From positions 62,001 to 126,000 of the forward strand of contig NC_008571.1 in NCBI RefSeq assembly GCF_000060345.1: a stretch of DNA of 64,000 bases, in the 5' to 3' direction. Position numbers and translations under genes: made by a program. Below are positions 26,620 to 31,043 of this stretch, piece by piece; the first letter of the stretch is position 1, and each line of letters opens with the position of its first letter. This stretch comes from Christiangramia forsetii KT0803 (GTDB lineage Bacteria; Bacteroidota; Bacteroidia; Flavobacteriales; Flavobacteriaceae). The notes beneath the pieces are model-generated. The model did not search any database and was not told where the DNA came from. It saw only the letters and a program-made list of their open reading frames with translations.

Positions 26620-26627
26620 TTTTAACT

Positions 26628-26720
26628 GTCATTCCGAACAAAGTGAAGGAATCGCATAGATCTGAGCAATATCTAGTATGATTGAGACTGCTTTGGCAGT
26701 TACACTTCCCTCGCAGGTAC
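26628..26720. repeat. Intergenic repeat type B, copy 1
   Basis: Starts GTCATTCCGAACAAAGTGAA and ends CCTCGCAGGTAC. About 90% identical by eye to 26859-26950, with the same central AGATCTGAGCAATATCTAG core. Confidence 0.75.
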
Positions 26721-26760
26721 ATAGTGATGAACTTAAATTAACAAACGTCTTTTGTTGATT

Positions 26761-26845
26761 GTCATTTCGACCAACGGGAGAAATCTCTAAGCAAGATTAA
26801 CTTCTAAAATCAGATTTCTCAGTCGCTTTGCTTCATCGAAATGAC
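26761..26845. repeat. Intergenic repeat type A, copy 1
   Basis: An 85-bp unit with terminal inverted repeats GTCATTTCGA/TCGAAATGAC and inner AGAAATCTC/AGATTTCTC arms. Lies between two type B copies, giving a B-A-B array. Confidence 0.75.
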
Positions 26846-26858
26846 ATCTATTTTTTCT

Positions 26859-26950
26859 GTCATTCCGAACGAAGTGAAGGAATCTCATAGATCTGAGCAA
26901 TATCTAGTATTATTGAGACTGTTTCGGTCGTTACACTCCCTCGCAGTGAC
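26859..26950. repeat. Intergenic repeat type B, copy 2
   Basis: Starts GTCATTCCGAACGAAGTGAA and ends CCCTCGCAGTGAC. It is the best-preserved type B copy in the window and the reference for the repeat hit by the IS110 element. Confidence 0.75.
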
Positions 26951-27016
26951 TTCCCAATTGGCTTTCCGAAACTATAGAGACGGAACGTTATCATAAGATG
27001 CTAAAATATATGTAGC

Positions 27017-27058
27017 AAAACGAGGAATCAGAATATTCAATTTTGATTCCTCGTTTTT
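27017..27058. terminator. Strong hairpin with T-run just upstream of the M49 gene
   Basis: Perfect 14-bp stem (AAAACGAGGAATCA 27017-27030, TGATTCCTCGTTTT 27044-27057) with a 13-nt loop and T-rich tail. It has the form of an intrinsic terminator usable in both directions, yet the next gene's -7 box starts 3 bp after it. Confidence 0.65.
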
Positions 27059-27059
27059 A

Positions 27060-27067
27060 TATCTTTG
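27060..27067 (+). promoter_or_regulatory. -7 promoter box of the M49 peptidase gene
   Basis: TATCTTTG matches TAnnTTTG exactly, 21 bp before the ATG at 27089. The only TTTG upstream (27042-27045) is 14 nt away and within the hairpin stem, closer than usual. Confidence 0.55.
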
Positions 27068-27088
27068 CACCTCAAATTTTTTAACAAC

Positions 27089-29164
27089 ATGAACAAAATA
27101 GTAAGTACGTGTCTATTAGCTACAGCGCTAACTTTTGTGTCCTGTAACGAGGATAAAAAGGATACAGCAGATAAAGCTCAGACAGAAAAGACTTCAGAAG
27201 ATTTCGATTTTCAGGCAGATGAATTTGCAGACCTTAAGATCCTGCGTTATCAAATCCCGGGGTGGGAGAATTTAAGCTTGAAAGAACAAAAACTGGTTTA
27301 TTACCTAACCCAGGCGGGGCTTTCAGGACGTGATATTATCTGGGATCAGAACTATCGTCATAACCTGAAAATTCGTGGGGCATTAGAGAATATCTACGCT
27401 AATTACGAAGGAGAAAAATCTGGTGATGATTGGGATACTTTTGAAACCTATTTAAAAAGAGTATGGTTTAGTAACGGTATCCACCATCATTATTCAAATG
27501 CTAAATTGAAGCCGGAATTCAGCAAAGAATATTTCGATACTTTATTGAAAGAAACCAATACCGATCTTACCGGAGAGGCTTACGAAGTGATCTTCAGCGA
27601 AAAGGATGCTAAAAAAGTAAATCTTAATGAAGCTGATGGACTTTTAAAAGGTTCTGCAATTAATATGTATGGAGCTGATGTAACTGCCGACGAGGTGGAT
27701 GCCTTCTATGCAAATAAAAAATCTCCAAATCCGGAAAAGCCATTGGCATATGGAATCAATACCAAGTTGGTGAAGGAAAATGGAAAATTGGTAGAAAAGG
27801 TTTATAAGAGCGGCGGACTTTACGGAGACGCGATAGATGAAATCATAAAGTGGCTGGAAAAAGCTAAAGGCGTTGCTGAAAATGAAAAGCAGGCGAATGC
27901 TTTAGGTCTTTTGATCGATTATTACAATACTGGGGATCTTCAAACCTGGGACGAGTATAATGTTGCCTGGGTAGAAGCTACCGAAGGGAATATAGATTAT
28001 ATCAACTCGTTTATTGAGGTATATAACGATCCAAAAGGTTACACCGGATCTTATGAAAGCATTGTTCAGATCAAAGATTTTGATATGTCGGCGAAAATGA
28101 GCAAAGTAGAACAGAACGTTCAGTGGTTCGAGGATAATTCTCCAATCATGGACGAGCATAAAAAAGATTCTGTAGTAGGAGTTACTTACAAAACAGTGAT
28201 CGTTGCCGGGGAATCTGGAGATGCTGCACCAAGTACTCCAATTGGAGTAAATCTTCCAAATTCCAGCTGGATTAGAAAACAACATGGAAGTAAATCGGTT
28301 TCTTTAGGAAATATTATCAATGCTTATGAAAATGCCGGAGGAACTAATAAATTAAAGGAATTTGCTCATGATGAAGAGGAAATTGCCCTTTCAGAAAAAT
28401 ACGGAAATCAGGCAGATAAATTACATACAGCACTTCATGAGGTAGTAGGTCATGCTTCCGGGCAATTGAATAAAGGAGTAGGGACTACAAAGGAAACTTT
28501 GAAGAGTTATGCTTCAACCATGGAAGAAGGTCGTGCAGATCTTGTAGGGCTTTATTATTTGATGGATCCAAAACTGGAAGAACTTGGTCTTACAGATAAT
28601 TCTGAAGAACTGGGGAAAGCTGCTTACAACGATTATATCCGTAACGGATTAATGACTCAATTGGTGAGACTGGAGCCTGGAGAAGATGTAGAAGAAGCTC
28701 ACATGAGAAACCGCCAATGGGTAAGTGCCTGGGTTTTTGAAAAAGGTAAAGACGAAGGAGTGATCGAAAAAGTGGAAAAAGAAGGTAAGACTTATTATGA
28801 TATTAAGGATTACCAGAAATTACGTGAGCTTTTTGGTGAATTGCTTAAAGAAACTCAGCGTATCAAATCTGAAGGAGATTACGAAGCTGCTAAAAATCTG
28901 GTAGAGAACTACGGTGTAAAAGTAGACCAGAAGATTCATAAAGAGGTGTTGGATAGAAATGCGAAATTCAAATCGGCTCCATATAGCGGATTCATTAATC
29001 CGGTATTGGTTGCTGAAATGGATGAAAAGGAAGAGATTACTGCCATTAAAGTAACTCAACCTGCATCTTTTGAAGAGCAAATGATGATGTACTCTAAAAA
29101 TTATAGCTTTTTAACTGAAAAGAAAAAAGCTAAGAAAGAAGAGACTGCAGAAGCAGAAATGTAA
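27089..29164 (+). CDS. M49 (dipeptidyl-peptidase III-like) zinc peptidase, lipoprotein
   Basis: Zinc metallopeptidase of the DPP III family, about 691 aa. The M49 hexapeptide motif HEVVGH is at residues 450-455, and the second metal-binding motif EEGRAD (479-484) replaces the usual EECRAE/D, with Gly for Cys. The ATG at 27089 is preferred over an upstream TTG (27065) because it gives a clean lipoprotein signal (MNKIVSTCLLATALTFVSC) and the -7 box overlaps the TTG. The protein is thus probably lipid-anchored in the envelope, unlike cytosolic eukaryotic DPP III, and would remove dipeptides from peptide N-termini. A terminator follows the gene. Confidence 0.9.
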   Translation: MNKIVSTCLLATALTFVSCNEDKKDTADKAQTEKTSEDFDFQADEFADLKILRYQIPGWENLSLKEQKLVYYLTQAGLSGRDIIWDQNYRHNLKIRGALENIYANYEGEKSGDDWDTFETYLKRVWFSNGIHHHYSNAKLKPEFSKEYFDTLLKETNTDLTGEAYEVIFSEKDAKKVNLNEADGLLKGSAINMYGADVTADEVDAFYANKKSPNPEKPLAYGINTKLVKENGKLVEKVYKSGGLYGDAIDEIIKWLEKAKGVAENEKQANALGLLIDYYNTGDLQTWDEYNVAWVEATEGNIDYINSFIEVYNDPKGYTGSYESIVQIKDFDMSAKMSKVEQNVQWFEDNSPIMDEHKKDSVVGVTYKTVIVAGESGDAAPSTPIGVNLPNSSWIRKQHGSKSVSLGNIINAYENAGGTNKLKEFAHDEEEIALSEKYGNQADKLHTALHEVVGHASGQLNKGVGTTKETLKSYASTMEEGRADLVGLYYLMDPKLEELGLTDNSEELGKAAYNDYIRNGLMTQLVRLEPGEDVEEAHMRNRQWVSAWVFEKGKDEGVIEKVEKEGKTYYDIKDYQKLRELFGELLKETQRIKSEGDYEAAKNLVENYGVKVDQKIHKEVLDRNAKFKSAPYSGFINPVLVAEMDEKEEITAIKVTQPASFEEQMMMYSKNYSFLTEKKKAKKEETAEAEM

Positions 29165-29186
29165 ACTTTCTTCTTCTGAACATAAA

Positions 29187-29212
29187 AAAAGCGTGGCAAT
29201 TGCCGCGCTTTT
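29187..29212 (+). terminator. Terminator of the M49 peptidase gene
   Basis: Hairpin AAAAGCGTGGC, AATT loop, GCCGCGCTTTT, with one G-U pair, starting 22 bp after the stop codon. Confidence 0.85.
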
Positions 29213-29241
29213 CTATTTCCAGACTGTAGGTAATGTTGGTT

Positions 29242-29325
29242 GTCATTTCGACCAAGGGGATAAATCTCTTAGTAGCTAAATTTCCGTTATGAGATTTCTC
29301 AGTCGTTTTACTTCTTCGAAATGAC
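29242..29325. repeat. Intergenic repeat type A, copy 2
   Basis: GTCATTTCGACC ... TCGAAATGAC with inner ATAAATCTC/GAGATTTCTC arms. It ends 9 bp before the left end of the IS110 element. Confidence 0.75.
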
Positions 29326-29340
29326 TTGAAAATGTCATCC

Positions 29341-29348
29341 TATGTTTG
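29341..29348 (+). promoter_or_regulatory. -7 half of a circle-junction promoter
   Basis: TATGTTTG is an exact TAnnTTTG box at the very left end of the element. In the integrated form no TTTG lies at the right distance upstream. In a closed circle, the TTTG at 30511-30514 of the right end would be exactly 20 nt upstream. Confidence 0.6.
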
Positions 29349-29354
29349 TAGATA

Positions 29355-29540
29355 GGACTTATTTTATTGTTAATCCATTATTTTGTAGGTTAATAATAAA
29401 GGGAGAAAGAGCAAGGCAATTATTTGTCATTTGTCTTAAAGACCGTTCTGAATGCTTGCCCCTTTCTCCCAGTGCTTAAATTTTGAACAGTTCATTAGGC
29501 CAAGAGCCTGCATTTAGGATTGATAAAATAATAGCACTTC
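29355..29540 (+). ncRNA. Candidate IS110 bridge RNA
   Basis: Three consecutive stem-loops. (1) 29364-29399: 10-bp stem TTATTGTTAA/TTAATAATAA. (2) Target-binding loop 29401-29470: stem GGGAGAAAG/CTTTCTCCC plus GCAAG/CTTGC; the left side carries TGTCAT (29425-29430), a small GTC/GAC hairpin follows, and the right side carries CGTTCTGAATG (29444-29454). (3) Donor-binding loop 29471-29538: stem AGTGCT/AGCACT plus ATTTT/AAAAT; left side ACAGTTCAT (29487-29495), hairpin AGGC/GCCT, right side TAGGAT (29515-29520). Left and right sides match the element's target and its own ends as bridge-RNA guides should. Exact 5' and 3' ends are estimates. Confidence 0.75.
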
Positions 29541-29555
29541 ATTAAAAGTTACAGT

Positions 29556-30521
29556 ATGAACAAATTTATTGGAATCGACATTAGTAAACAAACCTTTGAT
29601 GTTTCCTTTTCTGAAAATGGGCAGGAAGTATTCGACAACAATCAAAATGGTTTTAAAAAGTTGCTGAAACACATTGATAATAGCATCGGAGTGGTAATGG
29701 AAGCCTCTGGCCCTTATTATCTGAACCTGGCTACTTTTTTGTTCAATAAAAATATCCAAGTATTTGTGGTAAACCCTTTAAAGGTTAAACGTTTTAGCCA
29801 AATGAACTTCAACCGTGCCAAAACAGACAAAAAAGATGCAGAGGTTATCCGCAACTATGCCTTGAAGATGGAGGAAGATATGAAAGAATGGAAACCTGAA
29901 CCCAGGCATATCAAAGATATGAAGCAGCTTCATAGTTCTATTGAATTATTGAACAAGCAGTTGTAACAAACAAAGAACCAGTTAGGAGCTTTTGAAGACA
30001 GTGGTTCTGTCTGCAAAGAGCTGGGGAAAAGTTTTAAAAGTATCCTGAAAAAATTGGAAAAAGAGAAGGGAAAATTGGAAGGACAAATGCTTGTCCTGGG
30101 TAAAGAAGAATATAAACAAACCCTAAGATCACTTACTTCCATTCCTGGGATAGGAGATAAAACGGCTATTATGTTGATTGCCATTACCGCTGATTTTGAC
30201 AAATTCGAACATTATAAACAACTGATTGCTTATGTAGGATTTAGTCCCAGAATATACCAATCGGGCACCAGCATCAAGGGAAAAGGACATATATGTAAAA
30301 TGGGAAAGTCCCAGATAAGGAAATTACTATATATGTGTAGCTGGACAGCTAAAAGGTACAATAAGGGCTGTGCGGAAATGTATGAGCGATTGAGAAAGAA
30401 AGGAAAACCGGAAAGGGTAATTAAAATAGCTATCGCCAATAAGCTCTTAAAACAAGCTTTCGCGATTGCTAAAAACAAAACAGTATTTGATGAAAATCAT
30501 CAGCCAAAAGTTTGTTTTTAA
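29556..30521 (+). pseudogene. IS110-family DEDD recombinase interrupted by one in-frame TAA
   Basis: One continuous frame of 321 codons, broken only by TAA at 29964-29966 (codon 137). The N-terminal RuvC-like DEDD domain has D8 (IGIDIS), E49 (VMEASGP), D91 and D94 (TDKKDAEV). After the stop come a coiled-coil linker and the C-terminal Transposase_20 domain with LTSIPGIGDKTA and the serine-bearing YQSGTS motif (S236/S239). Full length would be normal for the family. The context LNKQL-stop-QTKNQL suggests a single C-to-T change of a CAA Gln codon. The gene as written yields a 136-aa N-terminal fragment and a possible 155-aa C-terminal one (ATG at 30054), so activity is doubtful unless the stop is read through or is a sequencing error. 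Confidence 0.9.
30511..30514 (+). promoter_or_regulatory. -33 half of a circle-junction promoter
   Basis: TTTG inside the last codons of the recombinase. In the excised circle it would be 20 nt upstream of TATGTTTG (29341-29348). Confidence 0.55.
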
Positions 30522-30528
30522 GCACAGT

Positions 30529-30607
30529 TCATTCTGAGGTGAAGCCGTAGGAATCTCATAATGTTAGTTAATAGATTGCGTCGGTCATTTTACTCCCTCG
30601 CAGTGAC
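30529..30607. repeat. Intergenic repeat type B, copy 3 (split by the IS110 element)
   Basis: TCATTCTGAGGTGAAGCCGT ... CCCTCGCAGTGAC. Its first bases (TG before TCAT) remain on the other side of the insertion, at 29333-29334. Confidence 0.75.
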
Positions 30608-30643
30608 TTGTTAAAGTTATCGCAAGTATAACGAATCGGTATG

Positions 30644-30862
30644 CTATTTAAAATCGGTCTTCAAATAAAGTCTTTCCACTTTTTCCCGAGCCCATGGAGT
30701 TTTCCTTAAAAATTTAAGACTGGATTTTATGGTAGGATTGCTTTTAAAACAATTAATATTGATTCGGTCGGCGAGTCCATCCCAACCGTAATGCTTTTGC
30801 AGTTCTTCTACGATAGTAGCCAGTTTTATTCCGTGTAATGGGTTGTTTGGTTGTGATTCCAT
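30644..30862 (-). CDS. VF530-family (DUF2132) DNA-binding-type protein
   Basis: A 72-aa protein matching the short, strongly conserved VF530 family: [40 protein letters not shown] and [11 protein letters not shown]. The Vibrio VF530 structure resembles DNA-binding folds, but the family's biological role is not established. The length equals the whole family domain. It stands alone between repeats. Confidence 0.9.
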
Positions 30863-30887
30863 AGTTAATATTCTTGAATTACCTTAT

Positions 30888-30958
30888 GTCATTTCGACCA
30901 GCGGGAGAAATCTCTTTTGAAACTAGATTTCTCAGTCGTTTCACTTCTTCGAAATGAC
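30888..30958. repeat. Intergenic repeat type A, copy 3
   Basis: GTCATTTCGACC ... TCGAAATGAC with GAGAAATCTC/AGATTTCTCAG inner arms; shorter spacer than copies 1 and 2. Confidence 0.75.
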
Positions 30959-31043
30959 AATTGAAAGATTATTTCATTCTAAACTTGTTTCAAAGCCTAT
31001 TCAGAGATTTATCAATTGTCCATTTTCAATTATAAATTAAGAA

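What the first reader, a model, noticed from the sequence alone, without database searches (positions are those of the whole stretch)
29355..29540. A bridge RNA can be read directly from the left end of an IS110 element
The 220-bp non-coding left end folds by eye into three stem-loops in the order known for IS621-type bridge RNAs. The target-binding loop (29401-29470) has TGTCAT on its left arm and CGTTCTGAATG on its right arm, separated by a small hairpin. The donor-binding loop (29471-29538) has ACAGTTCAT, an AGGC/GCCT hairpin, then TAGGAT. ACAGTTCAT equals the right end of the element (30524-30532), and TAGGAT is the reverse complement of ATCCTA at the left end (29337-29342): the match expected for donor guides pairing with opposite strands. 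Seen: the stems and matches. Known: IS110 bridge RNA architecture. Inferred: that this RNA is made and works.
Basis: partly seen in the sequence, partly recalled or inferred. Interest (0 to 1): 0.9.

Follow-up and report, generated by a model that had tools for sequence, protein, structure and literature searches.

The report
Guide RNA of a stranded IS110 element
A small jumping gene in this bacterium carries the blueprint of a guide RNA that tells it where to insert; comparison with relatives supports the RNA strongly, but this copy's enzyme gene is broken, so it is a new example of a known kind rather than a new system.

Summary
The left end of a 1,194-bp IS110-group element (29339-30532) encodes a two-loop RNA whose loops match the element's ends and flanks. 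In 23 related RNAs, 21 of 30 pairs show compensatory change. Right-target, left-donor and right-donor guides track their own DNA (0 of 50,000 permutations each). It is an IS110/IS621-type bridge RNA.

Three corrections. The 5' stem-loop is not conserved. The left target guide is supported only over its last five to six bases within this clade. The window copy's recombinase is split by an in-frame stop, it is the only copy in the genome, and its right guide mismatches its flank once, so it is probably stranded.

TTG stands exactly 20 bases before TAnnTTT(G/A) in 27 of 30 distinct circle junctions and in 0 of 30 integrated left flanks. The RNA would then be made mainly from the excised circle, as in IS621 but with this phylum's promoter type. 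Targets in the clade are mostly dispersed GTCATTnCGA palindromes.

The parts
29339..30532 (+). IS110-group element, 1,194 bp, shared core CAT at 29336-29338 and 30530-30532
   Evidence: ends set by donor-guide matches and by the same ends in relatives
29325..29338 (+). left target flank plus core, CTTGAAAATGTCAT
30530..30540 (+). core plus right target flank, CATTCTGAGGT
29341..29348 (+). TATGTTTG, putative -7 half of a Bacteroidota promoter; predicted RNA start near 29353
   Evidence: consensus TTTG/TANNTTTG from PMC6847099 (passage)
30511..30514 (+). TTTG, putative -33 half; exactly 20 bases before the -7 half when the ends are joined in a circle; in the window it overlaps the last codons of the recombinase gene
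29353..29540 (+). predicted bridge RNA, about 188 nt (start inferred from the promoter)
   Evidence: folds, covariation; transcript not observed
29363..29400 (+). weak 5' hairpin, not conserved in relatives
29401..29470 (+). target-binding loop with closing stem GGGAGAAAG/CTTTCTCCC
   Evidence: helices 1 and 2: 97-98% of cells paired, 10 of 12 pairs with double changes
29422..29430 (+). left target guide ATTTGTCAT, 7 of 9 equal to the flank
   Evidence: within-clade permutation test not significant
29444..29454 (+). right target guide CGTTCTGAATG; reverse complement CATTCAGA against flank CATTCTGA, 7 of 8
29471..29538 (+). donor-binding loop with closing stem AGTGCT/AGCACT
29487..29495 (+). 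left donor guide ACAGTTCAT, identical to right end 30524-30532
29515..29520 (+). right donor guide TAGGAT, complement of left end 29337-29342
29556..29966 (+). recombinase, N-terminal DEDD piece, ends at in-frame TAA 29964-29966
   Evidence: PF01548 2.1e-26; ORF list
29967..30521 (+). recombinase, C-terminal piece with serine motif, same frame after the stop
   Evidence: PF02371 9.2e-23
29238..29330 (.). dispersed palindromic repeat unit left of the element

Best explanation
The left end encodes a bridge RNA of an IS110-group element. In an active relative, the element is cut out as a circle. Joining right end to left end assembles a Bacteroidota -33/-7 promoter that transcribes the left end. 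The RNA binds the DEDD recombinase; its first loop pairs with a genomic GTCAT-TnnGA target and its second loop with the element's joined ends, so that strands are exchanged at a CAT/AT core. Shown here: structure conservation, guide-DNA covariation, and promoter-like halves at fixed spacing. Inferred from IS621: transcription, RNA-protein binding, and cleavage after the core T. The window copy is probably stranded by its interrupted recombinase gene, and no close relative of that recombinase was found in the genome to act in trans.
For: Structure: 94.2% of 688 cells paired against 81.1% after shuffling and 37-50% when slid; 21 of 30 pairs with double changes. Guides against own DNA in the clade of the window: right target 4.59 of 5 against 3.01 permuted (22 distinct elements), left donor 8.78 of 9 against 8.15 (23), right donor 5.70 of 6 against 5.19 (23), each 0 of 50,000 permutations. 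Natural retargeting: Sphingobacterium relatives with right guides TTCGA and TGCGA have flanks TTCGA and TGCGA, one with guide ACCGA has flanks ATCGA and ACCTA; L074 has guide and flank TGTTG, L093 CTCTA, L068 TCCTT. In Polaribacter, 7 insertions avoid the commonest repeat form TTCGA (1 of 7 against 70 of 100 listed of 106 sites, Fisher p 0.0056) and favour the guide form TGCGA (3 of 7 against 11 of 100, p 0.046). Recombinase: PF01548 and PF02371 in the two pieces; intact relative L051 matches the IS621 transposase, 7.2e-29, and passes the NCBIfam IS110 RNA-guided transposase cut-off, 201.4 against 140 bits. Split promoter in 27 of 30 junctions; TTG 18 bases before the right edge in 28 of 30 distinct right ends. 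The covariance model finds the RNA in 12 of 397 family genomes and 9 of 395 phylum genomes, the own genome counted in each.
Against: No transcript was seen; no RNA data were available. Left target guide: within the clade own match 3.21 of 6 against 2.93 permuted, reached by 2,806 of 50,000. The window's right guide has one mismatch in the first eight bases. The measure 'further pair types' was reached by 28 of 500 shuffles. Element ends were located with patterns that already fix part of the donor letters and the TAnG-TTT box, so the box itself is not independent evidence; four matches of a distant group (L139, L141, L146, L149) have TATATTAG there instead. The box carries G at -9, which is virtually absent from F. 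johnsoniae promoters (PMC6847099 passage). Permutations ignore relatedness. Rfam has no matching family at its cut-offs. The window's C-terminal piece alone stays below the NCBIfam cut-off (104.4 against 140). The window recombinase frame is interrupted.
Confidence: 0.93

Rival explanations
1. The structured left end is a 5'-UTR regulator (attenuator or riboswitch-like leader) of the transposase gene, not a guide.
For: It lies upstream of the gene on the same strand with conserved stems.
Against: It does not explain why loop bases follow the element ends and the foreign flanks across elements.
Confidence: 0.03
2. Target preference comes from the protein or from the abundance of GTCATTnCGA repeats, and the guide matches are inherited coincidence among related elements.
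For: The repeats are abundant (86 TGTCATTNNGA against 28 for the reversed pattern in the own genome; 662 against 8 and 106 against 7 for BGTCATTNCGA in two relatives). Left-guide matching is weak within the clade.
Against: Elements with different right guides have correspondingly different flanks, including forms outside GTCATTnCGA (L074, L093, L068). Polaribacter insertions do not follow repeat abundance (7 insertions only). Donor guides change together with the ends (ATCCTA, ATTCTA, ATCGTA, ATCTTA).
Confidence: 0.03
3. The window copy is still active as it stands, for example through recoding of the stop or assembly of two polypeptides.
For: Both pieces keep their domains and the frame is the same on both sides of the stop; DEDD and serine motifs are readable in the two pieces.
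Against: 14 of 14 relatives examined have a sense codon there; single copy; right guide mismatched once to its flank.
Confidence: 0.08

Closest known systems
IS621 and its bridge RNA (IS110 group; PMC11208160, PMC11208158)
   Same: Non-coding left end upstream of a DEDD recombinase; target loop then donor loop; left guides pair with the bottom strand and right guides with the top strand; promoter rebuilt across the joined ends; palindromic repeats as targets.
   Different: Core CAT/AT instead of CT; right target guide supported over about eight bases and left over five to six, whereas the IS621 structure pairs nine left and four right; 5' stem-loop not conserved; junction promoter of Bacteroidota type instead of sigma70.
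seekRNA-guided IS110 and IS1111 elements such as ISEc21, ISKpn4, ISPa11 (PMC11187229)
   Same: RNA from the long non-coding end, bottom-strand match before top-strand match as stated for IS110; repeats or attC sites as targets.
   Different: IS1111 members have the RNA downstream of the gene with the order reversed; here it is upstream.
CGTC-tagged palindromic repeats (PMC3733652)
   Same: The target repeats (CGTCATTGCGA in Sphingobacterium) carry the CGTC tag; the class is reported from Bacteroidetes (passage).
   Different: The term IS110 does not occur in that paper; that the window's repeats belong to this class is inferred from the tag.

Membership tests
IS110 group with bridge RNA | Recombinase with N-terminal DEDD domain PF01548 | tested here: met
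   2.1e-26, in the piece before the stop
IS110 group with bridge RNA | C-terminal domain PF02371 with conserved serine | tested here: met
   9.2e-23; G--P----SG motif read by eye from the translation
IS110 group with bridge RNA | Structured ncRNA in the left end, upstream of the gene, with two internal loops | tested here: met
IS110 group with bridge RNA | 5' stem-loop before the two loops (part of the IS621-type consensus; PMC11208160 reports diverse structures in the family) | tested here: inconclusive
   folds weakly in the window; 22 of 38 distinct stretches fold no better than -3 kcal/mol, 3 of 38 have z below -2; hairpins using the 14 bases next to the left edge were not examined there
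IS110 group with bridge RNA | Donor guides match the joined ends | tested here: met
   0 of 50,000 permutations for both sides
IS110 group with bridge RNA | Right target guide matches the insertion site | tested here: met
   22 elements, 0 of 50,000; window itself 7 of 8
IS110 group with bridge RNA | Left target guide matches the insertion site | tested here: inconclusive
   within clade 2,806 of 50,000 permutations reach the value; over all 36 elements 0 of 20,000
IS110 group with bridge RNA | Promoter across the RE-LE junction | tested here: met
   sequence only: 27 of 30 junctions, 28 of 30 right ends; activity untested
IS110 group with bridge RNA | RNA expressed and bound by the recombinase | not testable with these tools
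   needs RNA-seq and co-purification
Autonomous (self-moving) IS110 element | Uninterrupted recombinase gene | tested here: not met
   in-frame TAA 29964-29966; open in relatives, e.g. L051. The window copy is therefore not filed as autonomous.
IS1111 group | Long non-coding end downstream of the gene | tested here: not met
   217 bp upstream, 11 bp between stop codon and end downstream

The most novel reading that the evidence does not exclude
This is a Bacteroidota branch of bridge recombinases with its own rules: a CAT/AT core, target recognition weighted to the right guide, no conserved 5' stem-loop, and a phylum-specific -33/-7 promoter split between the ends so that the guide RNA is made mainly from the excised circle. 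Natural changes of the target loop have aimed members at two classes of palindromic repeat, REP-like GTCATTnCGA repeats and attC-like palindromes.
Probability: 0.6. Interest if true: 0.5.

Novelty: new member of a known kind. Interest (0 to 1): 0.4.

Why it matters
It gives a bridge-RNA family with readable guides, multi-copy relatives and named host genomes in a phylum whose promoter code differs from the sigma70 type published for IS621. It makes three things directly testable: whether the circle-driven expression switch is kept with a different promoter code, how guide length is divided between left and right arms, and how guides are re-aimed in nature. It also shows that a reader can predict guides from a single copy, although one copy alone gave only modest statistics.

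Tried and rejected
Rfam search, at gathering score over the window and at E up to 5 over the element, gave no bridge-RNA-like family. Nucleotide search of 397 family genomes gave matches in 45, the own genome included: one relic of the left end (L022, 82%) and otherwise short partial matches. Protein and covariance searches were far better. An exact empty site was sought in the genus: 19 of 20 genomes have a match to the left neighbourhood; six loci were given, one of them the own genome, and the stretch between the two neighbouring genes was read in four of the other five (L159-L162). None of the four shows the element. L159 has no repeat there, L160 and L161 hold one repeat unit, L162 a longer, different stretch; so there is no clean empty site. 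L163 was fetched but not read; my notebook entry wrongly says five of five. Full left-guide pairing over nine bases was tested and not supported within the clade. A conserved 5' stem-loop was tested and not found. In one search the right-donor offset was chosen by the own guide, which favours a match; one search was run without that choice and the result held.

Limits of the end-finding: of 78 RNA matches a left end was found in 68, a right end in 63, both in 58. Ends were found by patterns that allow only some donor letters; elements outside those patterns are not in the counts. Rows dropped: L094-L105 (one fragment, the rest 23-25% identical) were not analysed; L092 lacks the left end; L073, L022 and L135 were dropped before (contig end, relic, seemingly the same element as L054); one search used only the window's clade and left out the second match in L063. 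A1 holds 23 distinct RNAs; identical or near-identical copies and the relic were left out. No structure prediction was made.

Literature: no paper holding IS110, bridge RNA and Bacteroidetes together was found (0 papers), and nothing on a Bacteroidota-type junction promoter of IS110 showed in the listings. The library is open-access only. PMC11208160: abstract, passages and sections 12 and 13; PMC11208158, PMC11187229, PMC6847099, PMC9723704 and PMC3733652: passages only; all others: listings only.

Full report
What is there. The element runs from 29339 to 30532 (1,194 bp) with the trinucleotide CAT shared at both edges. It has 217 bp of non-coding sequence before the recombinase start at 29556 and 11 bp between the final stop codon and its right edge. 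The recombinase is read in one frame but is split by a TAA at 29964-29966. The piece before it matches PF01548 (2.1e-26) and the piece after it PF02371 (9.2e-23). In 14 relatives examined, all 14 have a sense codon at that place. The element is the only copy of its kind found in the 3.8-Mb genome. The other eight PF02371 matches there belong to a different IS110 element, which the RNA model does not match.

The observation. The RNA folds better than 199 of 200 dinucleotide shuffles over two stretches (z -3.65 and -3.29). On this one sequence alone the guide matches are suggestive rather than conclusive: 89 of 3,000 shuffles contain a match to the right end as long, 518 of 3,000 to the left end, and 0 of 3,000 hold both guides in order.

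Relatives. A scan of genome contigs with the C-terminal piece gave 55 loci, of which L051 to L093 are of this kind, in Flavivirga, Polaribacter, Flavobacterium, Sphingobacterium and other Bacteroidota plus one bin labelled Ignavibacteriota. Twenty-three distinct left-end RNAs, the window included, were aligned by sequence. RNAalifold gave 30 pairs, 21 with at least one double change. On the same structure 94.2% of 688 cells are paired; shuffling gives 81.1% and sliding 37-50%. The covariation score is 0.430 against 0.189, reached by 0 of 500 shuffles; the number of further pair types, 41 against 37.1, is reached by 28 of 500. The weakest helix is the outer donor stem (76% of cells), where the sequence alignment is also poorest. 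A covariance model finds the RNA in 12 of 397 genomes of the family and 9 of 395 of the phylum, the own genome counted in each and with strict filters. Over 86 sources it gives 78 matches in 77 sources; the nine without a match are L092, whose left end is cut off, and the eight copies of the other IS110 element.

Guides follow DNA. Forty-five distinct guide sets were obtained. In the window's own clade, right target guides match their own flank at 4.59 of 5 positions beyond CAT against 3.01 when permuted (22 elements). Left donor guides match at 8.78 of 9 against 8.15 (23), and right donor guides at 5.70 of 6 against 5.19 (23). None of 50,000 permutations reached any of these. The changes are easy to see: left end ATCCTA with guide TAGGAT, ATTCTA with TAGAAT, ATCGTA with TACGAT, ATCTTA with TAAGAT; right end ACAGTTCAT, ACAGATCAT and ACAGAACAT with the same letters in the RNA, with exceptions such as L067 and L057. 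Two cautions. Ends were found with patterns that allow only a few donor forms, though not with the own guide, so the matching of form to form is still informative. Permutation ignores relatedness, so the figures overstate independence. Against the reading: the left target guide is not supported beyond GTCAT within the clade. Own match is 3.21 of 6 against 2.93 permuted, and 2,806 of 50,000 permutations do as well. Over all 36 elements, including a sister group with other targets, it is supported (0 of 20,000), and L122 and L134 match at all nine of the last nine bases.

Target. The flanks of most clade members are GTCATTnCGA repeats. The pattern TGTCATTNNGA occurs 86 times in the own genome against 28 for the reversed pattern and 10 times in the window against 0.82 expected. 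The joined flanks of the window fold as a palindrome. In the genomes of the Sphingobacterium and Polaribacter relatives BGTCATTNCGA occurs 662 and 106 times against 8 and 7. In Polaribacter the commonest form is TTCGA (70 of 100 listed of 106 sites) but only 1 of 7 insertions uses it; 3 of 7 use the guide's TGCGA, which is 11 of 100 (Fisher p 0.0056 and 0.046). So the guide, not repeat abundance alone, best explains the choice. The window's right guide reads CATTCAGA; its flank is CATTCTGA. Its relative L051 has the same guide core and a perfect flank. The mismatch may be a tolerated insertion or later decay.

A split promoter. When right end and left end are joined as in the excised circle, TTG lies exactly 20 bases before a TAnG-TTT(G/A) box in 27 of 30 distinct junctions. 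The exceptions are two Polaribacter elements and the relic L022, which has no true right end. TTG occurs at any other spacing from 10 to 30 in only one junction. In the integrated left flanks TTG is at that spacing in 0 of 30. Because the pattern that located left ends already contains the box, I also tested right ends alone: TTG stands exactly 18 bases before the right edge in 28 of 30 distinct right ends. Together this is the Bacteroidota consensus TTTG/TANNTTTG (PMC6847099, passage). IS621 rebuilds a sigma70 promoter in the same position (PMC11208160, passage). Against it: G at -9 is virtually absent from F. johnsoniae promoters yet present in all junctions counted here; four matches of a distant group have TATATTAG instead; and in the window and some relatives TTTG overlaps the last codons of the recombinase gene, so coding conservation may contribute, although in others it lies beyond the stop.

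How it most likely works. Excision forms a circle; the circle makes the RNA; the recombinase uses the first loop to find a repeat arm and the second to hold the joined ends; strands are exchanged at the core. The last steps are taken from IS621 structures (PMC11208158, passages) and not shown here. An intact relative's recombinase aligns with IS621 along 307 residues (7.2e-29). The window copy itself is probably stranded.

Differences from IS621. The core is CAT/AT rather than CT. The right guide carries more of the target information than the left. The 5' stem-loop is not conserved: 22 of 38 distinct stretches fold no better than -3 kcal/mol. The junction promoter is of the phylum's own type. 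I file the element as a new member of a known kind, with these as clade features.

Noticed in passing
L164-L167 (own genome, 944-1,018 kb): Eight copies of a different, intact IS110 element with identical proteins, all in one orientation, in a long cassette-like array; seven of eight are followed at once by GTTATCGC, the start of an attC-like palindrome (GTTATCGC 48 times on one strand in 74 kb, 0 on the other; 2 in the 64-kb window).
   Followed up: partly
L175:4600-5775 (-), next to that array: A 392-aa tyrosine recombinase that reaches the NCBIfam XerA-type 'site-specific tyrosine recombinase/integron integrase' cut-off (220.3 against 220) but not the integron integrase one (209.3 against 265); its match to the latter is in two pieces, profile 6-180 and 239-314. 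It may serve the array as an integron-like system without a classical IntI.
   Followed up: partly
L138, L148, L151, L153, L155 (G449, 110-138 kb): Five copies of a sister-group element within 27 kb in another genome of the family, with left target guide ATAACCGC beside flanks AAACC(G/A)C and, read by eye, palindrome-like sequence in some left flanks: the sister group may be aimed at attC-like sites.
   Followed up: partly
L022:1486-1628 (-): An orphan left end, 82% identical to the window's, with an RNA truncated after the right donor guide and no recombinase match in the fetched stretch: a relic of a close relative.
   Followed up: partly
L063:2242-2565: One element appears inserted in the donor loop of another copy near a contig end; it may be real nesting or an assembly artefact.
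   Followed up: no
window 26627-30959: Several dispersed palindromic repeat units (TGTCATTTCGA...TCGAAATGACA) cluster around the element; the same intergenic spot in genus relatives L160 and L161 holds one such unit and no element.
   Followed up: partly
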